Of a stretch of 64,000 nt of DNA, positions 46,533-63,249 are shown piece after piece. Position 1 is the first letter of the stretch. Each line of letters begins with the position of its first letter. Below the pieces are notes generated by a model. It saw only the letters and a list, made by a program, of their open reading frames with translations. It was not told the DNA's origin and searched no databases. The DNA lies in NCBI GenBank assembly GCA_947492585.1, contig CANLND010000004.1, positions 1 through 64,000 of the forward strand, given 5' to 3'. The translations under genes and the position numbers were made by a program. This DNA is from an uncultured Paracoccaceae bacterium (lineage in GTDB: Bacteria > Pseudomonadota > Alphaproteobacteria > Rhodobacterales > Rhodobacteraceae).

Positions 46533-46609
46533 GGCGGAGTAGCTCAGCTGGTTAGAGCAGCGGAATCATAATCCGCGTGTCGGGGGTTCAAGTCCCTCCT
46601 CCGCTACCA
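46533..46609 (+). tRNA. tRNA-Met (anticodon CAU)
   Basis: Cloverleaf sequence of 77 nt including an encoded CCA. Acceptor GGCGGAG pairs with CTCCGCT (final G-U). D-arm GCTCAGCTGGTTAGAGC. The anticodon stem GCGGA/TCCGC encloses the loop ATCATAA with CAT at the anticodon. T-arm GGGGGTTCAAGTCCCTC. The G-U first pair and C-rich pattern fit elongator tRNA-Met as usual in alphaproteobacteria; tRNA-Ile2 (lysidine-modified CAU) cannot be fully excluded. Its last part is the attachment site of the inserted element, so the 3' end from 46598 is shared with the element. Confidence 0.92.
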
Positions 46610-48179
46610 CCAAACCCCCCAAGTTTTTGGAATGGTCGAAGATCAGTGCGCTCAAGCGCCCTCTAACTTCGACGGGAACACCGTCTTCTTCTGCTGGTGA
46701 TACAACAATCTCCGCGATCAGATCGCGCACGACATCGCGCGTTTTAGGGTCTGGCTGACCATCATTCTCCTGCATCGACGAAAACATGTCATTCAACGCA
46801 GCGGCATAGGTTGCGGGGGAGGCAGGATCGAACCTCACCTGCTGCTCCTGCTCATCCAGCGCCATTAGTGCGCATTTGGCCTCTTCAGCGTCTTCCTTGG
46901 CCGAAACGAGCAGAACCTCTCCCTCCTCGCCAGAAAGGATTCCTTTTTCAAAAAGGCCCAAGCGTGTCTCAAAGAGACTGCTCGCTTCTTTAAGCTGACG
47001 CTCCAGTTTCGTTCGATCAGGCTGTCCGCTTGCACTCAGCCTGCGACGCTCAGCATTGTAAACCTCAATAAAGGCCTCGACGTAGCTGGCGTTCGAAAGA
47101 ACGCCGCGGAGACTGGCAAACAGCTCCGCCTCAATCTTGTCGAGGCGCACTTTCTTAGTGTTGGAACAGGAGCCGCTTTCCGCGGCCGTCGAGCACCGGA
47201 TCCGAATGGCACTGCCCTTTCGGTCATGAATGGACATTCCGCCGCCACAGCAACCACATTTTAGCAGGCCCGAAAATGGGCGCGCGGGTCGCCGGGTTGA
47301 TTTCCCCGAACGTTTCGCCTGCGACTGCTTTGCAAGGCGCGCCTGCACCGTGTCCCAGAGCGCTTCATCAACAATGCGCAGATGCGGAACATCCGAGTAC
47401 TTCCATGACTCCTGAGGTTTTTCACGGCTAATGCGCTTACCCGTCTCCGGGTGGCGCATCATCTTCACACGATCCCACACCAGAACGCCTGCGTACAGAG
47501 CGTTTCTAAGGATCCCGTAACCACGCTTGCCATTACCATTCAGCGTTGACGCATTCCACTTTGCACCGCGCGGCGGAAGCACACCTCGTGCGTTCAAATC
47601 ATGCGCAATATCCCGAGGAGACACGCCTTCGGCATAGGCTTCATAGATCTGCCGAATAACATCCGCTTCATGCGTCGTGACCTGCAGTTCTCCTGCCCGC
47701 CCTGGCACCGGCGTATAGCCATAGGCCTTTCCGCCTGCGCTGAGTCCCTCGGAAATATTCCCAGACATGCCGCGATGCACCTTTTCGCGCAGGTCCTTCA
47801 TGAAAATGGTCCCCGTGAGGCCGCGAACGGCGATGTCCAGATCTGACTGCACACCGTCGCTGACCGAAATGATCTCTACACCAGAAAAGCGCAGCAATTT
47901 TTGCACTTTGTGCAAGTCTGCAGCATCCCGACTAATTCGGTCGACACACTCAATGATCAGCGCATCGAAATCTCCAGAACTCGCTGCCTCCAGAAAACCT
48001 GCGAGACCAACGCGCCCGATAAGCGTTTCAGAAGTTCTAGCACGGTCTTCAAAGGCTGCAACTTCACGAAATCCTTCGCGGACTATGTATTCCCTGCAGA
48101 GATCCATTTGATCTTCAATGGAACGGTCTGATTGCATTGTGCTCGAATAGCGGGCGTAGATTGCTGCGCGTCGTTGCAT
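46566..48179 (-). CDS. large serine recombinase (integrase)
   Basis: Site-specific recombinase of 537 aa. The resolvase domain (1-150) has AAIYARYSSTMQSDRSIEDQ with the nucleophile Ser, and CVDRISRDAADLHKVQKLL. A recombinase domain follows (about 165-290, GYTPVPGRAGELQV..YGILRNALYAGVLVWDRVK), then a zinc ribbon (CGCCGGGMSIHDRKGS..C..C) and a C-terminal coiled coil (about 370-440). Start ATG 48179 has GAGGAG 9 bases upstream. The last residues (AEEGLEPPTRGL) are encoded by the antisense strand of the tRNA gene, so they come from the chromosome and not the element. Serine integrases use a 2-bp crossover, but a 17-bp repeat is present here. Confidence 0.92.
   Translation of the reverse strand: MQRRAAIYARYSSTMQSDRSIEDQMDLCREYIVREGFREVAAFEDRARTSETLIGRVGLAGFLEAASSGDFDALIIECVDRISRDAADLHKVQKLLRFSGVEIISVSDGVQSDLDIAVRGLTGTIFMKDLREKVHRGMSGNISEGLSAGGKAYGYTPVPGRAGELQVTTHEADVIRQIYEAYAEGVSPRDIAHDLNARGVLPPRGAKWNASTLNGNGKRGYGILRNALYAGVLVWDRVKMMRHPETGKRISREKPQESWKYSDVPHLRIVDEALWDTVQARLAKQSQAKRSGKSTRRPARPFSGLLKCGCCGGGMSIHDRKGSAIRIRCSTAAESGSCSNTKKVRLDKIEAELFASLRGVLSNASYVEAFIEVYNAERRRLSASGQPDRTKLERQLKEASSLFETRLGLFEKGILSGEEGEVLLVSAKEDAEEAKCALMALDEQEQQVRFDPASPATYAAALNDMFSSMQENDGQPDPKTRDVVRDLIAEIVVSPAEEDGVPVEVRGRLSALIFDHSKNLGGLVVAEEGLEPPTRGL
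46598..46614. repeat. attachment site, left border (attL core)
   Basis: The 17 bases CCTCCGCTACCACCAAA cover the last 12 bases of the tRNA gene including CCA and five further bases. The same 17 bases recur at 63233-63249. The two copies define the borders of the inserted element. Confidence 0.85.
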
Positions 48180-49767: not shown

Positions 49768-51072
49768 TCACGCTGCCGCCAGAACAGGGAGCATTCCATC
49801 GCGTTTCAGCTCGTAATATTTGGTTCGGCCGATGCCGAGTTTTTCCCAGGGCTTTTCACGTGAGGCATTGTTCTTTGCCAGGTATTCCTCCCGGGACACA
49901 GCGCCATTCTCCGAGCGACGCTGCCGTTCCGCCTCCGCCTTACGACGCCTTCTTTCCAAAACCGGGATGACCTGCTGCAGGCCAAGACGGCGCGCCATTT
50001 CAGGCGTGACGCCGAGTCCACCTGCGATCGTCGCGCCTTTGTAATGATATCGACCGTCACCCCAGACCAACACCGTTCTGGTGAGCCTGGCCTTCTTCTC
50101 TGCCTGTCTGGCGATCGCATTGACTTCCCCGGGCTTCAGCCCGGGTGTTGCACTTGCGGCCATCTTCCGCACTTCCTCTTCGATGTCCCTGATGCCGGGA
50201 ATGTGCGTGAGGCAAGTCGCATGGAAATGCAGCCAGGTGTTCCGCAAGCCTGACGGGATCACGCCGCCGTGGGCATTTCGAAAGATTTCCAGATCATCCA
50301 GGATCAGCTTGAAACGCTTCGCCTGCGGCAGCCCCTTGGGCACTGATAAGCCTCTGGGCCGCTTTTTCCCTTTCTTCTGCTTCTTACGCTCCTCCAATTC
50401 CTCGCGGGTCGGTCTACCACTGGCTTTGAAGATGTTATCTGCCAGGGCATCGAAGCCGTATCGTCTTCCGGTGCCGCCTGAGACACGGACCACCTTGCCG
50501 GACTTTTCATTGATGGTTCCGGGTATCCGGAAAACCCTTGTGGCATCGCTGCAGGCCTTATCCGCCCCAAAAGATGTGGAGAACTCGATCAGGGCACTCA
50601 TCGCCCCCTGCCAGCGCGGGAGCGCCGAAACCGGTGTTTGCTCGATCAGCCAGATAGCAGCGAGGCCCCGGCCGGTGTGGATGAAGATGGAAGGCTGTGG
50701 CATTCGTGAAACCAGCAGATGCGCGGAATATGTCGCCTGCACCTCGTCCGGTGATTTCCCACACCATTGCGGGGCGTCGAAATAGTCGAGATCTACATAG
50801 AGCGAGTTCAGCGCAGCGAGGTGCCTGCCTTGTCGCCCCTTCCAGAAACGGTTGAGGGTCAGAAAGCTGGTTTGATCGAGAAACAGCGGCATCTGCATGA
50901 TCATGCCTGCGTGTTCGAGCGAAAAGTTCTCCACTTCGTCGCCGCCTTGTTTGCACAGAACCGCCGCACGCCCGCGGGAGCCTTCAGGGTGCAACAGGCG
51001 GAAATATTCCTCGGCAGAGAGGTCTGAAATCTGGTCGAGCGGGGCGAATTCGCTGGGATCTGTATGCTTCAT
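49768..51072 (-). CDS. replication protein with primase-like (AEP) domain
   Basis: Replication-initiation-type protein of 434 aa. Motifs of an archaeo-eukaryotic-type primase are visible: YVDLDYFDAPQW (the D-x-D pair), PQPSIFIHTGRGLAAIWL (the sxH-like motif), and CSDATRVFRIPGTINEKSG. A middle basic linker (REELEERKKQKKGKKR) is followed by a C-terminal helix-turn-helix-like part (LGIGRTKYYELKRDG). Similar proteins act as plasmid or element primases. It is divergent from the KfrA-like gene, with repeats in between that may be an origin. Confidence 0.72.
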   Translation of the reverse strand: MKHTDPSEFAPLDQISDLSAEEYFRLLHPEGSRGRAAVLCKQGGDEVENFSLEHAGMIMQMPLFLDQTSFLTLNRFWKGRQGRHLAALNSLYVDLDYFDAPQWCGKSPDEVQATYSAHLLVSRMPQPSIFIHTGRGLAAIWLIEQTPVSALPRWQGAMSALIEFSTSFGADKACSDATRVFRIPGTINEKSGKVVRVSGGTGRRYGFDALADNIFKASGRPTREELEERKKQKKGKKRPRGLSVPKGLPQAKRFKLILDDLEIFRNAHGGVIPSGLRNTWLHFHATCLTHIPGIRDIEEEVRKMAASATPGLKPGEVNAIARQAEKKARLTRTVLVWGDGRYHYKGATIAGGLGVTPEMARRLGLQQVIPVLERRRRKAEAERQRRSENGAVSREEYLAKNNASREKPWEKLGIGRTKYYELKRDGMLPVLAAA

Positions 51073-51367: not shown

Positions 51368-52000
51368 ATGCCTCGCCCCCCTCTCAATTCCGACCCGAAG
51401 ATCATCGAGACCGGTGAAACGTTGGAGAAAAATCTCGGCCGGGAGATCACCGCCACAGACATTCACAAGGCCTTTGAAGGCAAGGGCAATTACAAGCGGA
51501 TCCGCAGGGTCTGGGAGGATCATCTTGCAACGAAAGGTGAAGAACAGCTCCAAGACACCCCGCTGCCAGACGACACACAAGAACAGATCAGCAAAGCGGT
51601 AACTGCACTTGAAGCAAGTGTGGAGACCATCGTCCGGGGGCAGATCGCTCGAATGACAGAACAGAGTGTCCGGCAATTCGCTCTCCGCGAACGCGACTTT
51701 GCCATGCTGGAGGCCGAACATGCGAAGAAAGTTCAGGCGCTGGAGGAAGAGATCGCATATTTGACCGACTGCCTCGACCGGCTTGAGGCAGAAAAATTGG
51801 TCACATATGTCGATGCCCCCGACGACGTACCCGCACAACCTGCGGTGTCAAAACCGGCTCCGGCTGCGGCCGCCCTGGCGGAGGGTCGTAAGCGTCCAAA
51901 TCGACCTCTGCAGAAAACTCATCCGGCGGCTCGCAAGACGGCTCTTTCATTCCCGTCTGCGCCGAAGAAATCGCCATCTCCCACATCGAATCCGACCTGA
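51368..52000 (+). CDS. KfrA-like DNA-binding protein
   Basis: Protein of 210 aa. The N-terminal KfrA-type DNA-binding domain (about 5-60) has a helix-turn-helix-like TATDIHKAFEGKGNYKRIRRVW. A coiled coil (residues about 65-140, ALEASVETIVRGQ..LEEEIAYLTDCLDRLEAEK) follows, then a Pro/Ala-rich basic tail. KfrA proteins are plasmid-borne regulators linked to stable maintenance. The start has GGAG upstream. The last 200 bases (51801-52000) are antisense to the end of the relaxase gene; the low-complexity tail may partly reflect this. Confidence 0.7.
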   Translation: MPRPPLNSDPKIIETGETLEKNLGREITATDIHKAFEGKGNYKRIRRVWEDHLATKGEEQLQDTPLPDDTQEQISKAVTALEASVETIVRGQIARMTEQSVRQFALRERDFAMLEAEHAKKVQALEEEIAYLTDCLDRLEAEKLVTYVDAPDDVPAQPAVSKPAPAAAALAEGRKRPNRPLQKTHPAARKTALSFPSAPKKSPSPTSNPT

Positions 52001-53024
52001 CGCTGTCGAACTGCGCGGAAGTTTCGACGACGGTCTCCGCTTCCGCAGCAGTCCTTGCATCCTGAAGCCGACGTTTTTCAGCGTCGGCTTTTTCCTTTCT
52101 TTCGGCTTCCCGCTCCGTTGCAATCCGGGCAGATTCTTCCAGCCGGTCCTGTTCGCGCTGCAAGGCTCGCAAGTGCAGCCAGGTGCGCCAGAGATCATCA
52201 TTGTGCTCCTGGGTTTCGGCCCTGCGTTGCCCCGCCGTGCTGGTATCGCCTCCATCTTCTTCCAGACGGCGCGACCTTTCGGCCCGGCAAGGACCAAGAT
52301 GATCCTGAGGAATGAGACCGGCCGGGGCATCCCCAGCTTTGGCCATATCTTCGTAGGATCGAAGATCGACCCGTGTCGGTGAGCCGATCCGTTTCAACGC
52401 CGCATTGGTCCGTTTTTGCCACTCCTGGCGAATGCGAAGGATTTCTTCGGGGCCGGTCTTCTTGTCATCCAGAATTCTGGTCTTGTCGCCGAACGCGCCG
52501 GTTTCCGCGCAAACTTTTCGGGTCGTGAGCAGGATGTGTGCATGAAAATTTCGATTGGTCCGAGTCGGGTCGAAAAGCGCTGTCAGGTATTCCTGGGTAT
52601 CCGTGGCCAGCTTGCCGGCGTTATGACGCCGTTCCTCATCCCGATCCAGAAATCGGGGCGCATGGATGTCAGCCTGGACGGCAACACCATATTCGTCACG
52701 CAGCCACAGTGAAACTCCACGAACAAGCCTCACCTGTTCGGCGAGCGGTAGCTCGGTCGGCAGGGATGGGCGCAGCTCCCTGATGACCCGGGCATTGCGC
52801 CGGGTCTCTGCACGCTCTGCCTCGTTCCAGAGAGCTTCGGCATCGCCGCTCCAGTTGATGAGTTCATGCGAGAGAAGCCCGCCAAGTTTGCCTGCTCGAA
52901 ATCGCTGCCCCAGCCGCTCGTCCCGGTAGGACGTGCGGGCGGTATAGGCGGCGGATTTGACGGCGGACCTGCCATCGGCGCGAGAATGGACGACGACTTC
53001 GAGGCGACTTGCTGGATGTATCAT
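51801..53024 (-). CDS. MobA/MobL family relaxase
   Basis: Conjugative relaxase of the MOBQ type (407 aa). The N-terminal domain (to about 220) begins HPASRLEVVVHSRADGRSAVKSAAYTARTSYRDERLGQRF, which is typical, and the HUH metal motif is NRNFHAHILLTTRK. A basic Arg/Glu-rich coiled coil (residues about 250-330) and an acidic tail follow. It nicks DNA at oriT and pilots a single strand for transfer using a helper T4SS, which is not present here. Start ATG 53024 precedes a divergent mobC-like gene with a candidate oriT between them. Confidence 0.86.
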   Translation of the reverse strand: MIHPASRLEVVVHSRADGRSAVKSAAYTARTSYRDERLGQRFRAGKLGGLLSHELINWSGDAEALWNEAERAETRRNARVIRELRPSLPTELPLAEQVRLVRGVSLWLRDEYGVAVQADIHAPRFLDRDEERRHNAGKLATDTQEYLTALFDPTRTNRNFHAHILLTTRKVCAETGAFGDKTRILDDKKTGPEEILRIRQEWQKRTNAALKRIGSPTRVDLRSYEDMAKAGDAPAGLIPQDHLGPCRAERSRRLEEDGGDTSTAGQRRAETQEHNDDLWRTWLHLRALQREQDRLEESARIATEREAERKEKADAEKRRLQDARTAAEAETVVETSAQFDSVRSDSMWEMAISSAQTGMKEPSCEPPDEFSAEVDLDAYDPPPGRPQPEPVLTPQVVRVRRRGHRHM

Positions 53025-53978: not shown

Positions 53979-54265
53979 GTCTGAATGCGATACACGAACC
54001 CTCCGTTCATATAGAAACCTCGTCGGCTTCACCAGGTTGAGCACCGCCAGATCGGCTGGATTTGAAACAGTCAGTGAAAAATCTGTGCGCTTGTTCGGGA
54101 AAACCGATGTTCGTAGTGCAGAACAGCCTCGCCAGTTTCATCATCGGTATGGATGACAAGACAAGGGCGATCCTTTTGACCAGATCGGTCGGAATGGGGG
54201 AAGCGAAAAGAAACGATGTCGCCAGTGGAAAGCGGACGGGCTGCGCCCGGCACATGTGCCGTCAT
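53979..54265 (-). pseudogene. broken small protein, possibly PemK/MazF-like
   Basis: Starting at 54265, MTAHVPGAARPLSTGDIVSFRFPHSD continues to a frame break after 'DRPCLVIHTDDETGEAVLHYEH'. Protein-like reading then moves to another frame (TTNIGFPEQAHRFFTDCFKS) and to a third (NPADLAVLNLVKPTRFLYERRVRV). Two frameshifts therefore seem to divide one gene. The GDIVSFRFP..D....DRPCLVI opening recalls SH3-like PemK/MazF toxins, but I am not certain of the family. Confidence 0.3.
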
Positions 54266-54575
54266 GGGGGGCTCCAGGAATGGTGGAAATCTTGTCGCCC
54301 TGTCTTTAAATTCATCCTTCGGACGTCTCTGAGTGCTCTCTTCGAGTTCAGTGAAGAGAGCTAAGTGATTACGTAAATTGGGATATTTCTCAAATCCGCT
54401 CACGGGAGATGAAACAAAACTTTATGCCGAAATTGCAAATAAATTGGCTTCGGTTTTCTGAATTTCGGCCAATGCGATCAACATTAGGTTGCGCAAGCCA
54501 CTACCGGCCCATAGAAATTTCACACATAGTCAATTACGGCCATGCCATTTCAGAACGACCACGAACGGAATTTCC

Positions 54576-57287
54576 ATGAACCCCACTGAGATCTTCGAAG
54601 CCCTTGAACAGATCTCTGACAAGCCGTTCAGCGCTGAAGAATTTCCCTTCGAGTTTGCCCAGGCCACCGATGTCGCCCAAGCGGCGATTGCCAAGCTGCG
54701 CAATGGCACAACCAACAAGTCGGATCAGCCTGGTGGTGTCCTGGTAAACAAAAAGTTCCACTTTGCGCCAGCCATGGCCGGATTGGCCGATGTTACCCTG
54801 GAGGCCCTGCGAAACTCCCAGAAGACCGCCACCGCCAAACCGGCGATCCTGATTGCCACCGATGGCGAAATGGTGGCTGCCCAGCAACGGGTCAGCGGAG
54901 AGACCTTGCATTGCCGTTTTGACGAGATCGGGGACAAATTCGGCTTCTTCCTGCCTGCTGCGGGCAAGGAACGCTATGAGGCAGCCGAAGAAAACCCGAT
55001 CGACGTCAAAGTCACCGCCAAACTGGCCAAGCTTTATGACGCACTGGTTCGCAAGAACCCGGATTGGGCCAGTGATGAACGTCGGCATGAGATGAACCAG
55101 CTGATGATGCGGCTGATCTTCTGCATGTTTGCCGAGGATGTGGGCATCTTCCCCGACAACCAGTTCAGTCAGATCCTGTTCAACCATGCGGGCAACAAGG
55201 GCGAGGAAGCACGCGAGGTGATTATCGCTTCCTTCACCGCTATGAACCAACCCAAGGACAAGCGCAGCGATCTTCCTGCCTGGGCGGGTGACCTGGAATA
55301 TGTGAACGGCGGGCTATTCGCGGGATCCATCGACGCGCCTGTCTTTGACGTGACCGCCTATCGCTATCTGCGCGATGCCTGTGATGAGGATTGGCGCGAG
55401 ATCAATCCGGACATCTTTGGCTCCATGATCCAGTCGGTGGCTGATCCAAAACAGCGCAGCGAGCTGGGGATGCACTACACCTCGGTGCCCAATATCATGA
55501 AGGTGATCGGGCCGCTGTTCCTGGATGACCTCGATGGTGAGATCGACAAGGTCTGGGAACGGCCCAATGGCCTGCGCAGGGTGCTGACGCGGATCGAGGG
55601 GATCCGGGTGTTCGACCCCGCCTGTGGGTCAGGCAACTTCCTGGTCGTATCCTACCGTCAGCTACGCGAACGCGAGATGCGGATCCTGGAACGGCTGGAG
55701 GAGCTGACAGCGGAGAGCACGAAAGAGATGTTCTCGGCCGTGAAGATCGCCAATTTCCACGGGATCGAGATCACCGATTTTGCGGCCGAGACCGCCAAGC
55801 TGGCGCTGTTCATCGCCGAATATCAGGCTAATGCGGTTTTCAAAGAGGTCTTTGGCCAGGGCCCGGCCAGCCTGCCGCTGCGTGAGAGCGCCCATATCGT
55901 TTGTGACAATGCTCTGCGTGTAGATTGGGAAGAGGTCTGTCCACCTCCTGGAGAGGGAGAGGAGGTCTTCATTGCGGGCAATCCGCCATTCCTCGGATCG
56001 ACATATCAGAACAAAGAGCAAAAAGCTGATCTTGCCTTTGTGTTCAAGGAGCACGTGAAGAACTTCGCAGCTTTCGATTTCGTAGCAGCATGGTTTTTCA
56101 AGGCGTCACGATTTATTCGCGGATGCGATGCTAAGGCTGCGTTGGTGTCCACCAATTCCATTTGCCAAGGTTATTCCGTGGCAGCACTCTGGCCAACCAT
56201 CCTTGGTTCGGAGCTGGAGATTGGCTTCGCGCACAGAGATTTCAAATGGCGCAATAATGCATCTGCAAATGCTGCGGTGATTTGCTCGATCGTGGGTATT
56301 CGAAATGTGGAAAGGCAAGCCAAAAGGCTAATCGTCGACACCATCGAAACTGCGGTGGCAAATATCAATTCGTATCTTGTTGGCGGGCCAATTGTCTATG
56401 TGCAAGGCACTCGGCAGGCTCTGTTCGACCTTCCAAACATGGACTACGGAAACAAACCTGTTGAAGGTGGCAATCTCATAGTCAGTGAGGCAGAGAAGGC
56501 TGACTTGATCACCAATGATCCACGAATTGAACGATTTCTGAGGCCCTTCATGGGGTCACAAGAGGTCACCAAGGGATTTCGGCGCTATTGCTTCTGGATC
56601 ACCAACGAGACCCTGAACGAAGCGCTTTCGATTCCCGAAATCGCGGAACGGGTGGAAAAGGTAAGAGAGTTTCGCGAAGGAAGCCCTGATGCATACGTTC
56701 GTGAAAAGCTTCTTCCGCTTTCCCATCGTTTTAAGCAGGTGTTCGAAGCCAAAGACCATCTTTTTATCATCCCTCGGCACACAGGTGAAAACAGGCATTA
56801 CCTTCCGGCGGCCCGCTTGGATTCAGAGGTCATTTGTTCAGATGCGGCAATGGCACTCTACGATGCTCCGGACTGGACTTTCGCCCTGTTTTCGTCGCGC
56901 ATGCACATGATCTGGATTGCCACAGTCTGCGGTAAAATCAAAACCGACTACCGATATTCCAACACCTTGGGTTGGAATACCTTCCCGGTCCCGAAGTTCT
57001 CAGAGGATGAGCTTGAAGCCCTCAATGCCTCGGCTCGCAAGATTCTAAAGTGCCGCTATTCTCATTACCCGGCGACCATCGCCGAGCTCTATGATCCGGA
57101 CAAAATGCCCGACGACCTGCGCGCGGTGCATCGGGAGAATGATGAGCTGTTGGAGACCATGTATATCGGTCGGCCCTTCCGCAATGACACCGAAAGGCTG
57201 GAGCATCTTTTCAAGCTCTATGCCGCCAAGATCAAACAGATTGAAAAACAGGCCGCGAATTCCAAACGCGGCAAAAGGAGCAAATAG
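54576..57287 (+). CDS. MmeI-like class I DNA adenine methyltransferase
   Basis: Large protein of 903 aa. N-terminal helical region (1-200) with KNPDW and MNQLMMRLIFCMFAEDVGIF, typical of the MmeI/Type IIG-like methyltransferase family. The methyltransferase domain follows: GMHYTSVPNIMKVIGPLFLDDL at about 298-318, SAM motif I VFDPACGSGNFL (about 345-356), HGIEITDFAAETAKLALF, and motif IV AGNPPFLGS (NPPF at 469-472), which marks an N6-adenine enzyme. A C-terminal half probably recognises DNA. I see no PD-(D/E)xK nuclease motif in the N-terminus, so restriction likely depends on its partners. It heads an operon with a helicase (0-base gap) and a GIY-YIG nuclease. ATG 54576 follows a weak CGGA; a TTG far upstream is unlikely. 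Confidence 0.85.
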   Translation: MNPTEIFEALEQISDKPFSAEEFPFEFAQATDVAQAAIAKLRNGTTNKSDQPGGVLVNKKFHFAPAMAGLADVTLEALRNSQKTATAKPAILIATDGEMVAAQQRVSGETLHCRFDEIGDKFGFFLPAAGKERYEAAEENPIDVKVTAKLAKLYDALVRKNPDWASDERRHEMNQLMMRLIFCMFAEDVGIFPDNQFSQILFNHAGNKGEEAREVIIASFTAMNQPKDKRSDLPAWAGDLEYVNGGLFAGSIDAPVFDVTAYRYLRDACDEDWREINPDIFGSMIQSVADPKQRSELGMHYTSVPNIMKVIGPLFLDDLDGEIDKVWERPNGLRRVLTRIEGIRVFDPACGSGNFLVVSYRQLREREMRILERLEELTAESTKEMFSAVKIANFHGIEITDFAAETAKLALFIAEYQANAVFKEVFGQGPASLPLRESAHIVCDNALRVDWEEVCPPPGEGEEVFIAGNPPFLGSTYQNKEQKADLAFVFKEHVKNFAAFDFVAAWFFKASRFIRGCDAKAALVSTNSICQGYSVAALWPTILGSELEIGFAHRDFKWRNNASANAAVICSIVGIRNVERQAKRLIVDTIETAVANINSYLVGGPIVYVQGTRQALFDLPNMDYGNKPVEGGNLIVSEAEKADLITNDPRIERFLRPFMGSQEVTKGFRRYCFWITNETLNEALSIPEIAERVEKVREFREGSPDAYVREKLLPLSHRFKQVFEAKDHLFIIPRHTGENRHYLPAARLDSEVICSDAAMALYDAPDWTFALFSSRMHMIWIATVCGKIKTDYRYSNTLGWNTFPVPKFSEDELEALNASARKILKCRYSHYPATIAELYDPDKMPDDLRAVHRENDELLETMYIGRPFRNDTERLEHLFKLYAAKIKQIEKQAANSKRGKRSK

Positions 57288-59360
57288 ATGGCTCAGATGC
57301 TCAATGTGACCTACGGGCGCTCAAAATCCTCGACCAACGCCATGGGCATGCGCGAAATGCAGGCGCGGGCCTATGCGGCGCGGGCGGCGCAATTTCTGCT
57401 GCTGAAAGCTCCTCCGGCGGCTGGGAAAAGCCGTGCACTGATGTTCATCGCGCTCGACAAGATGCGCCATCAGGCCCGTGAAAAGACCATCGTCTGCGTG
57501 CCAGAAACCTCGATCGGCGGGTCATTCCGCTCGACGGATCTGACCAGCTATGGGTTCGAGGCGGACTGGGAGGTCGAGGATAAGTGGAACCTTTGTCTGA
57601 CCGGGGATGACGCCCAGGACCGCAAGGTGAAGGCCTTTGTTGAGTTCATGGCCTCGGACGCAGAGGTGCTGGTCTGCACCCATGCTACCTTCCGCTTTGC
57701 CTATGACAAGGTGGTCGAGGATCAGGGGATTGAGGCGTTTGACGATTGCTTCATCGCGGTGGATGAATTCCATCATGTCTCGGCGTCGGATCACAACCGC
57801 CTGGGCGTGATCTTGCGGGCCCTGGTGGCGCGGGAGAAATGCCACTTGATGGCGATGACCGGCAGCTATTTCCGTGGCGACGCGGATCCGGTTCTACGTC
57901 CGGAAGATGAGGCCAAGTTCACCACGATCACCTACAGCTACTACGAACAGCTGGAGGGCTATGAGCACCTCAAGGCGCTTGGAGTGAATTATCAGTTCTA
58001 CAAGGGAAATTATACCAACGGCCTCGAAGGCGTGCTGGATCCGGCGCAAAAGACCATCATCCACATTCCTCACCGTGGCTCGTCTGAGGCGTTCGATGAC
58101 AAGAACAACGAGGTCGGGAAGATCATGGATTTCCTCGGCAAACACGTCGGGCGGGAGCCGGAAACCGGATTTGATCTGATTGAGTTGCCGGACAGGCGGA
58201 TTCTGAAGATTGCCGACCTCGTGGATGACGGACCGGGGCGCAGCATCGTCAAGACGGCCCTTTCGCGCGAGATCAAAGGCGCGAATGGCAAGCGGGATGA
58301 TGCGGCGGATCGCGCAAAGGTGGACATCATCATCGCGCTTGGCATGGCCAAGGAAGGGTTTGACTGGGTCTGGTGCGAACATGCGCTGACCATCGGGTAT
58401 CGGTCATCACTGACCGAGATCGTGCAGATCATCGGCCGGGCCACACGCGACGCTCCAGGCAAGCCACGTGCAGTCTTTACCAACCTGGTAGCAGAACCGG
58501 GGGTAGAAACCGGCGTTGTGTCCGACGCAGTCAACGACATGCTCAAGGCGATCTCAGGCTCGCTGCTGATGGAGCAGGTGCTGGCCCCGAACTTCAAGTT
58601 CTACCGCCGCGAAGACGGGGATGTGCGAGAGCCCGTGCAAACCGATGGGCAAGGCAACGTCATGATCGGCATCAAGGGCTTGATTGAGCTGCCCACTAAG
58701 CGCGCCAAGGAAATCTGCGAACAGGACATGCAGGACCTTCTTGCCGCGGCCTGTCAGGCCATGGACAAGCGCGTTCTGGCACCTGACACGGCCCCAGAGG
58801 TCGCCACCCAGATGATTCTGACCGACATCATCGAAACGCGCTATCCGGACCTCAGCGACGAAGAAACCGAAAGCGCGCGTCAGCATCTTGCAGCGCACAT
58901 GAACATCCAAACCCTTGCCCGTCGGGAAGTGGAGCATGGAATGGCAGAAGCCGCTGCGGTTTTTGAAGGCAACGAGACGGGAACTGAAGACAAGGGCGAA
59001 GCGGAAACAGACAGCGCTCCGAACACGCTTCTCCAGATGGTAAAGAAGTTCATCAACGTGCGAGAGATTGACGTCGATCTTATCGACAGCGTGAACGCCT
59101 TCCACGAACGGTTCGAAGTCGCTTCAAAATCACTGGATGCGCAGCTGTTGCAGCATGTGCAGTCCGCCATGGTTGCAATCCGAGTGGCCATGACGGAGGA
59201 AGAAGCGCGAACGCTTTGGCCACGGATCAAGGCATTTCGGGCTGCAGAGGGGCGTGAACCCTCTCTGAACGCGCCAGATGCTTTGGAAAAGCGGATGGCC
59301 GAGGCGTTAGCTTGGCTCAAAACGCAGAAAGCCAAACGTATGCGGGAAGGGGTACAGTGA
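57288..59360 (+). CDS. SF2 DEAD/DEAH-box-type helicase of a defence-like operon
   Basis: Superfamily 2 helicase of 690 aa. Walker A is APPAAGKS (41-48), motif II is DEFHH (159-163), motif III-like MTGSYFRG is at 190-197, motif V includes MAKEGFDW (353-360), and motif VI is QIIGRATRD (380-388). The DEFH box is used by restriction-related and DNA-repair helicases. Residues from about 500 form an extra helical and acidic region without known domains. Start ATG directly follows the methyltransferase stop (TAGATG), and the stop overlaps the start of the GIY-YIG gene (TGATG), so all three are co-translated. Confidence 0.88.
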   Translation: MAQMLNVTYGRSKSSTNAMGMREMQARAYAARAAQFLLLKAPPAAGKSRALMFIALDKMRHQAREKTIVCVPETSIGGSFRSTDLTSYGFEADWEVEDKWNLCLTGDDAQDRKVKAFVEFMASDAEVLVCTHATFRFAYDKVVEDQGIEAFDDCFIAVDEFHHVSASDHNRLGVILRALVAREKCHLMAMTGSYFRGDADPVLRPEDEAKFTTITYSYYEQLEGYEHLKALGVNYQFYKGNYTNGLEGVLDPAQKTIIHIPHRGSSEAFDDKNNEVGKIMDFLGKHVGREPETGFDLIELPDRRILKIADLVDDGPGRSIVKTALSREIKGANGKRDDAADRAKVDIIIALGMAKEGFDWVWCEHALTIGYRSSLTEIVQIIGRATRDAPGKPRAVFTNLVAEPGVETGVVSDAVNDMLKAISGSLLMEQVLAPNFKFYRREDGDVREPVQTDGQGNVMIGIKGLIELPTKRAKEICEQDMQDLLAAACQAMDKRVLAPDTAPEVATQMILTDIIETRYPDLSDEETESARQHLAAHMNIQTLARREVEHGMAEAAAVFEGNETGTEDKGEAETDSAPNTLLQMVKKFINVREIDVDLIDSVNAFHERFEVASKSLDAQLLQHVQSAMVAIRVAMTEEEARTLWPRIKAFRAAEGREPSLNAPDALEKRMAEALAWLKTQKAKRMREGVQ

Positions 59361-60559
59361 TGCCAAGACCCACCCTTGATGACATCTTCGCCGAGCCGGA
59401 CAAGTTTGGCCTTCTACAAGTCGCCCCTCAGAAGCAGGCTGTGTCGAAATCTGACGGCGGGACAGCTGTGCTCAGCGACGTTACGCGGTTTTTCGAACAC
59501 CACTGCCGTCTGCCGGATTCCGACGCCGAAGACCACGAAGAAATGCGCCTCGGAACCATTTGGGACAAATTGAGGCAAGCCCCGACCCAGGACATGCTGG
59601 AGGCGGACACGCTGGGCCTTTTGACAGCACCCGAGCCTGCACAGCTGAACTGGCGTGACGAACCCGCAGAATATGATGTCCCGGACAGTCTGGATGACAT
59701 TTTTGCGGATGATGATCTTGAAGTGCCTGCGGAGTTCTCGGACCTCCGTCACGTCACCCCGTCGGCTGAGAGGCACCAGCCTGACCACCGGGCCGAGTTC
59801 TTCCCCTGCTCCGATTTCGACCAATTCGAGGCGAAGTTTTCGAAAATTCAGGCCGCTTTGGAAGCGGGTGAGCGTACAACAAAGATCGTTGAGAAATGGG
59901 CGATTATTGAACCTGTTGCTGGGGATGTTTTCATCCGAAATGGGCTTTTGTGCCTCGTGGTTGAACGGATGCGCAAATCTTCCGGCGGACTTTCCCAGGA
60001 AGACCGGCTGCGCATCGTGTTGTCCAACGGCACAGAAAGCGACCCTATGGTTTCTTCGTTTCGCAAAGCGCTGAACGACGACAAAACGGCCCGTTCCGTT
60101 CAGAAAGTCGGGTTGGGGCCGCTTGATCCTGAATGGGAGGCTGACCAGCTGGCCGTTGCCGGAACGATCTATGTTGCAAAATCCCGATCCGATGATCCAA
60201 ACATCCGGCCGCACCGCGATATTCTTCACAAAATCGGAGTAACCAGCCAGGACGTGAAACGACGGGTAGCCGACGCAAAAAACGACCCGACCTTCCTACT
60301 GGCCCCTGTAGAGGTCGTTGCCACTTATCAACTGGCGAACCTTCCAAGAGAAAAGGTCGAGAACCTACTGCATCGTTTCTTCGAAGCCGCCCGCCCAGCG
60401 GAACTCTTTATTCTGGATCGCTTTGGCAAGAAGGTGCATCCCAAAGAGTGGTTTTTTGTCTTGCCGGAACATGTGAGCCAGGCAGCGAAGCTGATACAGC
60501 GACAAAAGCTTCATTTATACCAATACAACCCCAAAAGTCAGGCAATCGAGAAGAAATAG
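59360..60559 (+). CDS. GIY-YIG nuclease-domain protein of the operon
   Basis: Protein of 399 aa. An acidic N-terminal half (1-150) contains two copies of an LDDIF motif (TLDDIFAEPDKFGLL at 5-19, SLDDIFADDDLEVP at 110-123). A C-terminal GIY-YIG domain has GTIYVAKS (268-275, GIY), LHKIGVTSQDVKRRVADAK (289-307, YIG with the catalytic Arg) and ENLLHRFF (E334, metal-binding Glu), ending with PKEWF. The start is the ATG overlapping the helicase stop. It is the likely nuclease of the three-gene module. Confidence 0.82.
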   Translation: MPRPTLDDIFAEPDKFGLLQVAPQKQAVSKSDGGTAVLSDVTRFFEHHCRLPDSDAEDHEEMRLGTIWDKLRQAPTQDMLEADTLGLLTAPEPAQLNWRDEPAEYDVPDSLDDIFADDDLEVPAEFSDLRHVTPSAERHQPDHRAEFFPCSDFDQFEAKFSKIQAALEAGERTTKIVEKWAIIEPVAGDVFIRNGLLCLVVERMRKSSGGLSQEDRLRIVLSNGTESDPMVSSFRKALNDDKTARSVQKVGLGPLDPEWEADQLAVAGTIYVAKSRSDDPNIRPHRDILHKIGVTSQDVKRRVADAKNDPTFLLAPVEVVATYQLANLPREKVENLLHRFFEAARPAELFILDRFGKKVHPKEWFFVLPEHVSQAAKLIQRQKLHLYQYNPKSQAIEKK

Positions 60560-61756: not shown

Positions 61757-62863
61757 ATGCGTGATATCTCTAACCTGCCCGGTCAAACATTGCTATCTGA
61801 AATGCAAGGCGGGGATTTTAGCTTTGCAAAAGAAAACCTAATTAGCCAGTTTGGCGGTTCCAACGCGAGCGATCCATGGGTGATCGCGGGACAAACCTAC
61901 ACTCAAAGCCTTTCCATCAATTACTATGACGCCGCTTCAGCATCAGATGGTCTGGTCGACAATACCGGCTGGAATCGGAAACTTGTCTTCCTCGGCAACA
62001 ATCTGGAATTCAATTCAGATGGGTTTCCGACATCTGGCGATATCGAAGCAATCGTATTCATGAATGTTCATGAACAAGTCCTGGTTGGGGCAATTGACCT
62101 TGAAGGAGTGTCCGCAGCTGACTTCTACGCAGCATGGAGCAGCAACACTTTGAGCGACGATACCACCTTTCTCAACTCCATCTTTGATTCCGACGACCCA
62201 AATGGCGACTTGATCACAGGTACTACTGGCGACGATGTGATCAACGGAACAACCGCAGATAACATGATCGAAGCGGGCACTGGAAACGACTCAGTTGACG
62301 GCGGCGCGGGAAACGACACCATTTCTGGCGCCGGAGGTCGTGACCTTCTTCGTGGAGAGGAGGGCAACGACAAGCTCTTTGGCAACAGTGGCAGCGACAA
62401 ATTGGTCGGTGGGACTGGCGGAGACGTGCTGAAGGGCGGTGGCGGGCGCGACAAGCTCTTTGGCAACAGTGGCAGCGACAAATTGGTCGGTGGAACTGGC
62501 GGAGACATGCTGAAGGGCGGTAGCGGGCGCGACAAACTCTTGGGGGGAAGTGGTACAGATTACCTAAAAGGCGGCAGAGGTAACGATAAATTAGACGGAG
62601 GTGCTGGCAACGACAGACTCGTCGGAAATGCTGGCGCAGATGACTTTATATTTTCATCTGGGTTGGACCTCGTGCAAGATTTCGGGAGCCGCGATCAAGT
62701 GGACTTGCGAAAAGCCGATGGCATCGACGATTATGACGACCTCATCGCAAACCATATCCAGCAAGGCGGCGACGGAGTTATTATTGTAGATAACGACGGA
62801 GACGAGATGACTTTGTACGGAATCGATATCGCCGATCTGGATCAAGGCGATTTCATTTTCTAA
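61757..62863 (+). CDS. RTX-type calcium-binding protein of the element
   Basis: Protein of 368 aa. The N-terminal 155 residues form a non-repetitive domain (MRDISNLPGQTLLSEMQGGDF..WVIAGQTYTQSLSIN..FFLGNNLEF-type text), and from about 155 to 315 it has RTX repeats (GTGNDSVDGGAGNDTI). It ends in a probable type I secretion region (DGVIIVDNDGDEMTLYGIDIADLDQGDFIF). An 81-bp segment (62369-62449) is directly repeated (62450-62530) with three base changes. It lies inside the element and is flanked by 51-bp direct repeats, so it may have been acquired separately. No secretion genes are near. Confidence 0.75.
   Translation: MRDISNLPGQTLLSEMQGGDFSFAKENLISQFGGSNASDPWVIAGQTYTQSLSINYYDAASASDGLVDNTGWNRKLVFLGNNLEFNSDGFPTSGDIEAIVFMNVHEQVLVGAIDLEGVSAADFYAAWSSNTLSDDTTFLNSIFDSDDPNGDLITGTTGDDVINGTTADNMIEAGTGNDSVDGGAGNDTISGAGGRDLLRGEEGNDKLFGNSGSDKLVGGTGGDVLKGGGGRDKLFGNSGSDKLVGGTGGDMLKGGSGRDKLLGGSGTDYLKGGRGNDKLDGGAGNDRLVGNAGADDFIFSSGLDLVQDFGSRDQVDLRKADGIDDYDDLIANHIQQGGDGVIIVDNDGDEMTLYGIDIADLDQGDFIF
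62369..62530 (+). repeat. 81-bp tandem duplication in RTX gene
   Basis: Two adjacent 81-bp units (62369-62449 and 62450-62530) differ at three positions; each encodes 27 residues, DKLFGNSGSDKLVGGTGGD(V/M)LKGG(G/S)GR. This points to a recent internal duplication of RTX units. Confidence 0.9.
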
Positions 62864-63232: not shown

Positions 63233-63249
63233 CCTCCGCTACCACCAAA
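63233..63249. repeat. attachment site, right border (attR core)
   Basis: CCTCCGCTACCACCAAA, identical to the end of the tRNA gene at 46598-46614. Beyond it the sequence returns to chromosomal DNA leading to tpa. Confidence 0.85.

What the first reader, a model, noticed from the sequence alone, without database searches (positions are those of the whole stretch)
54576..60559. Three-gene MTase-helicase-GIY-YIG operon, a likely uncharacterised defence system
Seen: an MmeI-like adenine methyltransferase (motifs FDPACGSGNFL and NPPF), an SF2 helicase (DEFHH) and a GIY-YIG protein are co-translated with gaps of 0 and an overlap of 1 base, as cargo of a mobile element. Known: methyltransferase plus helicase plus nuclease is the logic of restriction. 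What is unusual is the combination. MmeI-type enzymes normally carry their own nuclease domain and no helicase, and I see none here; DISARM would need DrmA/DrmB/DrmC, BREX would need PglZ/BrxC, and Type III would need a fused Res nuclease. Inference: the methyltransferase marks self, and the helicase feeds non-methylated DNA to the GIY-YIG nuclease.
Basis: partly seen in the sequence, partly recalled or inferred. Interest (0 to 1): 0.85.

Follow-up and report, generated by a model that had tools for sequence, protein, structure and literature searches.

The report
Known methylase-helicase-nuclease defence operon
Three adjacent genes on a small mobile element encode a DNA-marking enzyme, a DNA motor and a likely DNA-cutting enzyme; this trio is already described (dnmA-yeeB-yeeC), probably works as a split restriction system, and its mechanism is still untested.

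Summary
In detail: MTase 54576-57287, SF2 helicase 57288-59360 and T5orf172/GIY-YIG protein 59360-60559, inside a ~16.6-kb tRNA-Met element. The trio is a fixed unit: 75 of the 80 nearest genome loci show all three in order, the other 5 stop at a contig end; in an even draw of 398 Pseudomonadota genomes, 22 of 24 helicase-bearing genomes agree and 2 stop at a contig end. But 'uncharacterised' is wrong: this is the published dnmA-yeeB-yeeC cluster, proposed as Type I-like R-M, inactive against the phages tested in B. subtilis, reported protective in Vibrio crassostreae (PMC9973331, PMC7261158). Added here: trio MTases lack the MmeI D-E-K nuclease residues (0 of 67, 0 of 15) that solo relatives keep (10 of 10); helicase and GIY-YIG residues are conserved; the nearest relative found has a swapped recognition domain; the site is predicted as GCGRm6AG; the MTase-helicase junction takes varied insert genes. 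Best reading: a split, ATP-dependent restriction system; a new member of a known kind, moderate interest.

The parts
54576..57287 (+). MmeI-family N6-adenine DNA methyltransferase (DnmA-like) without the N-terminal nuclease motif
   Evidence: Pfam MmeI_N/hel/Mtase/TRD/C; phmmer to MmeI 5hr4 E 4.6e-148; nuclease motif absent
54576..55055 (+). N-terminal domain (aa 1-160) homologous to the MmeI N-terminal domain, D..ExK residues not kept
   Evidence: PF20464 E 2.7e-22; alignment with solo relatives
56388..56996 (+). target recognition domain; residues at MmeI-equivalent positions predict 5'-GCGRm6AG-3'
   Evidence: rules from PMC4833311 passages
57288..59360 (+). SF2 helicase/translocase (YeeB-like)
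   Evidence: DEAD/ResIII; motif residues 17 of 17 and 80 of 80 loci; AF2 model and Foldseek SF2 hits
59360..60559 (+). T5orf172/MUG113 GIY-YIG nuclease-like protein (YeeC-like) with a conserved N-terminal region
   Evidence: Pfam; key residues 78 of 79, one gapped; AF2 model
46533..46609 (+). tRNA-Met, integration target
   Evidence: ARAGORN
46598..46614 (.). left 17-bp attachment-site repeat (3' end of tRNA-Met)
63233..63249 (.). right 17-bp attachment-site repeat
46566..48179 (-). large serine recombinase (probable integrase of the element)
   Evidence: Resolvase/Recombinase/Zn_ribbon_recom
49768..51072 (-). RepB-primase-like protein (below the Pfam cut-off, 22.9 against 24.3 bits)
51801..53024 (-). 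MobA/MobL relaxase
51368..52000 (+). KfrA_N-like protein (weak, 20.3 against 26.1 bits)

Best explanation
A three-subunit restriction-modification system of the dnmA-yeeB-yeeC kind. The MmeI-type MTase recognises a short asymmetric site (predicted GCGRAG) and methylates its adenine on one strand. When that site is unmethylated on incoming DNA, the MTase acts as the recognition subunit for the SF2 helicase, which translocates using ATP, and the GIY-YIG protein supplies the cut that the N-terminal nuclease domain makes in MmeI-type solo enzymes. In logic it resembles Type I/Type ISP enzymes split over three chains. Shown here: gene order, near-obligate linkage, absence of the in-cis nuclease motif, retained motor and nuclease residues, exchanged recognition domain. 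Inferred: methylation of this site, complex formation, translocation, cleavage, and protection of this host.
For: Trio complete in order in 75 of 80 genome loci, the other 5 stopping at a contig end, and in 22 of 24 genomes of the phylum draw, the other 2 stopping at a contig end. MmeI-type D-E-K nuclease residues: 0 of 67 trio MTases that align there (76 examined, 9 gapped, one of the 67 gapped at one of the three) and 0 of 15 in the class sample, against 10 of 10 solo relatives. Helicase motif residues 17 of 17 class loci and 80 of 80 genome-collection loci (those loci were picked by patterns that include two of the motifs). GIY-YIG G268/Y271/K291/G293/R302/E334/E363 78 of 79, one gapped. 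Relative L173: 92.6-97.7% identity in the other MTase domains and 94.1% in the helicase, but 41.2% in TRD aa 605-758, i.e. a specificity exchange. Coupled specificity pair K-D, E-R or R-D in 74 of 76. Junction inserts include GmrSD_N, Fic, SLFN_AlbA_2 and KilA-N genes. V. crassostreae deletions of dnmA and yeeB homologues raised sensitivity to some phages, as reported in PMC9973331.
Against: The B. subtilis trio did not restrict plasmid transformation (PMC7261158) or the three phages tested, and its site is not under-represented in phage genomes (PMC9973331). In V. crassostreae other phage subclades were unaffected (same passage). Nothing here shows cleavage or complex formation. The GIY-YIG model gave no PDB match at E <= 0.001. 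Broken or partial copies exist: G045 (GIY gene truncated), G065 (MTase and GIY pieces without helicase), G034 (MTase with internal stops), G495 (MTase in two frames), viral contigs L207 and L215 (short helicase, no GIY).
Confidence: 0.62

Rival explanations
1. An orphan regulatory methyltransferase beside a decayed restriction module, as proposed for B. subtilis DnmA: methylation is kept for gene regulation and the helicase and nuclease are inactive.
For: B. subtilis knock-outs gave no phage or transformation phenotype, and DnmA alters gene expression (PMC9973331; PMC7261158).
Against: In this window all three frames are open, and the motor and nuclease residues conserved among relatives are kept, not expected of relics; the 80 loci were picked partly by two helicase motifs, but the 17 loci were not. 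The element looks mobile, and the nearest relative found has exchanged the TRD.
Confidence: 0.15
2. A defence system that blocks phage DNA replication or transcription without cutting (BREX-like), the GIY-YIG domain serving DNA binding or another substrate.
For: PMC9973331 calls the T5orf172 domain largely uncharacterised, with predicted functions involving DNA binding, and reports no site avoidance in phage genomes.
Against: Conservation of the GIY-YIG key residues (78 of 79, one gapped) and the link of the partners with absence of the MTase's own nuclease motif.
Confidence: 0.17
3. A plain Type IIG/IIL enzyme, as the PADLOC model would label it, with two unrelated neighbours.
For: PADLOC PDLC03598 REase_MTase_IIG, 896.8 bits, E 3.6e-270.
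Against: Nuclease motif absent; the neighbours are near-obligate.
Confidence: 0.03

Closest known systems
dnmA(yeeA)-yeeB-yeeC cluster, Bacillus subtilis and Vibrio crassostreae homologues (PMC9973331, PMC7261158; passages read)
   Same: MmeI-like m6A MTase without nuclease motif, SF2 helicase at +1, T5orf172/GIY-YIG protein at +2, same order; horizontally acquired setting
   Different: The B. subtilis YeeB and YeeC are reported to lack stretches in their C-terminal domains and gave no phenotype; the window copy has open frames with conserved residues kept, and its predicted site (GCGRAG) differs from GACGAG
MmeI (Type IIL), PDB 5hr4
   Same: Spacer, MTase, TRD and C-terminal domains over aa 122-888, E 4.6e-148
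   Different: MmeI carries its nuclease in the same chain (PMC7261158) and has no helicase partner (recalled); here the D..ExK residues are gone and two partner genes follow
Type ISP enzymes (LlaBIII, 4xqk) and Type I HsdR (EcoR124I)
   Same: ATP-dependent SF2 motor working with an m6A MTase (recalled); both are among the Foldseek hits of the helicase model
   Different: Those fuse the motor with a nuclease of another family (recalled); here motor, recogniser and nuclease are three chains and the nuclease is GIY-YIG. The fold matches are to the SF2 core only, and other SF2 helicases rank higher
DISARM / BREX
   Same: Remote MTase similarity to DrmMI (E 8.4e-36) and PglX (E 2.3e-6)
   Different: No DrmA/B/C, PglZ or BrxC among the families shown for the three proteins (for the MTase 25 of 45 shown) or for ten further element ORFs scanned with Pfam

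Membership tests
dnmA-yeeB-yeeC cluster | MmeI-like MTase lacking the N-terminal endonuclease motif | tested here: met
dnmA-yeeB-yeeC cluster | helicase at +1 and T5orf172/GIY-YIG protein at +2, same strand | tested here: met
   relatives
dnmA-yeeB-yeeC cluster | direct sequence homology to the B. subtilis YeeA/YeeB/YeeC proteins | not tested
   No B. subtilis chromosome was opened. A MmeI_TRD hit in B. subtilis was seen among the controls, and the trio occurs in Cohnella, Tumebacillus and Anaerovirgula loci L166, L170, L172
dnmA-yeeB-yeeC cluster | m6A at a non-palindromic site | not testable with these tools
   Needs a methylome; motif predicted only
Type IIL (MmeI) / Type IIG | MTase, TRD and C-terminal architecture | tested here: met
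Type IIL (MmeI) / Type IIG | nuclease motif D..ExK in the same chain | tested here: not met
Type III R-M | Res subunit with helicase and fused nuclease, with a Mod subunit (recalled) | tested here: not met
   ResIII helicase domain only, no nuclease domain found in the helicase chain by Pfam
Type ISP R-M | nuclease, motor, MTase and TRD in one polypeptide (recalled) | tested here: not met
   three separate genes
DISARM | DrmA, DrmB and DrmC present (recalled) | tested here: not met
   PADLOC shows only DrmMI-type similarity, in the MTase
BREX | PglZ and BrxC present (recalled) | tested here: not met
   ten other element ORFs by Pfam

The most novel reading that the evidence does not exclude
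The trio is a distinct, still unnamed class of ATP-dependent restriction-modification: an MmeI-type enzyme gave up its own nuclease, keeping a dead nuclease domain perhaps as a docking surface, and became the exchangeable recognition subunit of a YeeB motor and a GIY-YIG cutter. Its operon also carries a built-in slot between methylase and helicase that captures further defence or toxin-type genes.
Probability: 0.4. Interest if true: 0.62.

Novelty: new member of a known kind. Interest (0 to 1): 0.4.

Why it matters
The only member studied closely in the papers I could read, that of B. subtilis, looked inactive, so how this widespread trio works is open. The helicase was found in 24 of 398 Pseudomonadota genomes, the window's own included. 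An apparently intact copy with a predicted site, plus a close relative with an exchanged recognition domain, makes the question directly testable. The PADLOC model that matches the MTase would label it Type IIG although it lacks that class's nuclease motif, so counts of R-M types may be affected.

Tried and rejected
Type IIG/IIL as the whole answer: rejected because the nuclease motif is missing. DISARM, BREX and Type III: defining partners not found. A fixed fourth component between MTase and helicase: rejected, since the gap exceeds 250 nt in only 25 of 76 loci and the inserted genes differ, although some insert families recur by eye. Apparent exceptions: G375 seemed to lack the MTase and G422 to hold only an MTase fragment, but a whole-genome search found the MTase ~7 kb upstream on the same contig and strand in both. 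G045 seemed to lack GIY; a gene fragment was found, running into phage-like sequence (terminase-like and methylase-like frames by eye); an assembly fault is not excluded. The GIY-YIG model gave no PDB match at E <= 0.001, only weak ones, most of them EF-P/IF5A or ribosomal chains. The helicase model (mean pLDDT 78.5) matched the general SF2 core (query TM-score 0.20-0.40 in the rows shown), so no identity is claimed for its C-terminal region. The first TRD-pair count by regular expression missed many rows and was replaced by an alignment-column count. The regular-expression test for the nuclease motif found it in 0 of 76 trio and 8 of 10 solo enzymes (one miss had its frame extended upstream, the other departs from the expression); the column-based count is the one used. 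Rows dropped: MTase frames under 500 aa were left out of the alignment (L042, L056, L058). An empty site was not shown: in six same-genus regions the tRNA is present, but none matched the left and right flanks side by side; the stretches held were 3-12 kb.
Full report
OBSERVATION. Pfam gives the complete MmeI chain (N, spacer, MTase, TRD, C) for the first, DEAD/ResIII for the second, and MUG113/T5orf172 for the third. The MTase aligns with MmeI (PDB 5hr4) over aa 122-888, E 4.6e-148.

MOBILE SETTING. A large serine recombinase (46566-48179) overlaps the 3' end of tRNA-Met (46533-46609). A 17-bp stretch at that tRNA end (46598-46614) recurs exactly at 63233-63249, giving an element of about 16.6 kb with MobA/MobL and a RepB-primase-like gene. 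In same-genus genome G349 the genes that follow the right repeat lie near the same tRNA with about 8 kb of other DNA between, and G348 carries sequence like the recombinase end at that tRNA, so the tRNA looks like an insertion hot spot. I did not find an empty site. Relatives of the element's own mobility genes were rarely seen near other trios: among 123 loci searched, INT 2, RepB 1, MobL 1; but those loci hold at most 6 kb on each side, so more distant mobility genes would be missed. The helicase is also on plasmids: 261 of 72,556 records match, 152 over at least 80% of it.

CO-OCCURRENCE. Class draw: 16 of 337 genomes, the window's own included, have the helicase (17 loci). With wider flanks, an MTase (whole, cut by a contig end, or interrupted) lies upstream in 17 of 17 and a full-length GIY frame downstream in 16 of 17; in the seventeenth (G045) the GIY gene is a fragment running into phage-like DNA. 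By record title the 75 include Verrucomicrobia, Lentisphaerae, Chlamydiae, Bacteroidetes, Treponema and Bacillota; the non-Bacillota ones of these are MAGs, where misbinning is possible. Two cyanobacterial MAG loci (L136, L139) are among the 5 cut. Even draw of 398 Pseudomonadota genomes: 24 with the helicase. Of these, 4 (G000, G154, G145, G267) were in the class sample and are complete; of the other 20, 18 have MTase and GIY (two with ~7 kb between MTase and helicase; the MTase frame is partial or split in L245, L251 and L252) and 2 begin at a contig end. Viral contigs: 31 of 43 complete, 10 at a contig end, 2 (L207, L215) without GIY and with a short helicase. One class genome (G065) has MTase and GIY pieces without the helicase.

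LOST NUCLEASE IN CIS. Solo MmeI-like proteins of the class sample, from genomes without a helicase match, keep the D...E-x-K residues in 10 of 10 (two are from one genome, G199; an eleventh row labelled solo in the script, L059, is really a trio member cut at its N-terminus). Trio MTases keep them in 0 of 15 (class) and 0 of 67 (genome collection; 76 examined, 9 gapped at these columns, one of the 67 gapped at the D). The domain itself remains recognisable (PF20464 E 2.7e-22); it is remodelled, so single columns may be misaligned, but a search by expression also found the motif in 0 of 76 (and in 8 of 10 solo enzymes). So absence of the in-cis cutter goes with presence of the helicase and GIY-YIG partners. 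This correlation is the strongest evidence here that the partners supply it. Absence of the motif in a set of MmeI homologues flanked by yeeB- and yeeC-like genes was already noted by Morgan et al. 2009, which I saw only as cited in PMC7261158.

ACTIVE-SITE CONSERVATION. All 17 helicase motif positions checked are invariant in 80 of 80. Those loci were found with two patterns (MAKEGFD, A[VI]DEFHHV), so invariance of the residues in them is partly by selection; Walker A (K40-S48), T191, G192, I381, R384 and R387 are outside the patterns, and the same 17 positions are invariant in the 17 class loci, which were found without patterns. In the GIY-YIG protein G268, Y271, K291, G293, R302, E334, E363 and W364 are kept in 78 of 79, the other being gapped. 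Reading these as the GIY-YIG catalytic set is from general knowledge of the fold. AF2 models: GIY-YIG protein mean pLDDT 85.1, pTM 0.43; helicase 78.5, pTM 0.68. Foldseek: no PDB match at E <= 0.001 for the former; SF2 helicases including Type ISP LlaBIII and HsdR for the latter, with low TM-scores.

SPECIFICITY. Residues at the MmeI-equivalent contact positions are D705/K720/Q721 (base 1), Y624/K627 (base 2), R734/D756 (base 3), A757/R793 (base 4) and K789/D791 (base 6). With the rules in PMC4833311 (passages) these predict 5'-G-C-G-R-m6A-G-3'; bases 6 and 3 are firm by those rules, base 4 good, bases 1 and 2 tentative. Across 76 trio MTases the base-6 pair is K-D 33, E-R 33, R-D 8, other 2. 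The nearest relative found, L173 (94.1% identical helicase, 86.7% GIY), is 92.6-97.7% identical in the other MTase domains but 41.2% over TRD aa 605-758, and its DNA alignment to the window is broken over 56297-56849 (aa ~574-758). This is a recognition-domain exchange, as expected of an R-M system under pressure to change specificity. Its base-2 and base-4 residues (R/Q; L) predict a different site.

THE JUNCTION SLOT. In 25 of 76 loci the MTase-helicase gap exceeds 250 nt. Ten inserted frames were scanned: GmrSD_N, Fic, SLFN_AlbA_2 with HATPase_c_4, and KilA-N above cut-off, one Abi_2/HEPN-like below cut-off, five without a match. In L154 and L249 a short second match to the MTase C-terminus lies between the insert and the helicase side, which hints at how inserts are taken up. 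The window copy has no insert.

MECHANISM. Most likely the MTase is the recognition subunit, the helicase an ATP-driven motor loaded at unmethylated sites, and the GIY-YIG protein the cutter. A motor would also help with a known problem of one-strand methylation at an asymmetric site: after replication one daughter carries unmethylated sites all in one orientation, and Type III/ISP enzymes cut only after meeting in opposite orientation (recalled). Complex formation, translocation and cutting are inferred. Against it: B. subtilis deletion of dnmA gave no growth defect and nearly the same transformation efficiency (PMC7261158), and yeeB/yeeC deletions no phage effect (PMC9973331). The missing growth defect on losing the MTase is what a Type I-like arrangement predicts, since the nuclease would need the MTase to find its site. 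PMC9973331 reports that in V. crassostreae deletion of the dnmA and yeeB homologues raised sensitivity to some phage subclades and not others, citing Piel et al. (bioRxiv 10.1101/2021.05.05.442762; not read), and suggests that the B. subtilis proteins lack C-terminal stretches.

KNOWN OR NEW. The cluster is in print as dnmA-yeeB-yeeC; I read passages of PMC9973331 and PMC7261158. My nine paper searches, read as listings, showed none that I recognised as giving its mechanism or a system name; the library holds open-licence papers only, and Morgan 2009 and Makarova 2011 were not held. PADLOC would file the MTase as Type IIG. Verdict: observation confirmed, mechanism plausible, novelty claim not upheld; a new, apparently intact member of a known kind.

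Noticed in passing
between MTase and helicase in 25 of 76 loci, e.g. L113, L122, L130, L143, L148, L152, L154, L155, L160, L163; G375:C9 and G422:C67: The MTase-helicase junction is a recurrent insertion slot for differing genes (of ten frames scanned: GmrSD_N, Fic, SLFN_AlbA_2, KilA-N, one Abi-like below cut-off, five unassigned), up to ~7 kb.
   Followed up: partly
L154 (4260-4508) and L249 (11634-11798): A short second match to the MTase C-terminus lies between MTase and helicase beside the inserted genes, as if insertion duplicated the MTase end.
   Followed up: no
L173 (IMG/VR contig) against window 54466-60486: A relative with 87-90% DNA identity across the trio except an unaligned block at window 56297-56849, most of the recognition domain: a specificity exchange.
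   Followed up: yes
PADLOC model PDLC03598: The model matches this nuclease-less trio MTase as a Type IIG restriction enzyme, so automated defence counts may misfile this system.
   Followed up: partly
window 61757-62863: A protein with RTX calcium-binding nonapeptide repeats lies inside the element, downstream of the trio.
   Followed up: no
window 54071-54403: Weak PemK/MazF-like match (below the Pfam cut-off) just upstream of the trio on the other strand; a possible toxin-antitoxin remnant.
   Followed up: no
plasmid collection: 72 of the 261 plasmid records with a helicase match are from Acinetobacter, and YeeB and YeeC-like genes are described beside blaOXA-23 in A. baumannii (PMC9241911, passages).
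   Followed up: no
G065 (L042), G034 (L061), G045 (L058): Partial or decaying copies: helicase missing, MTase with internal stops, and GIY gene truncated beside phage-like sequence, respectively.
   Followed up: partly
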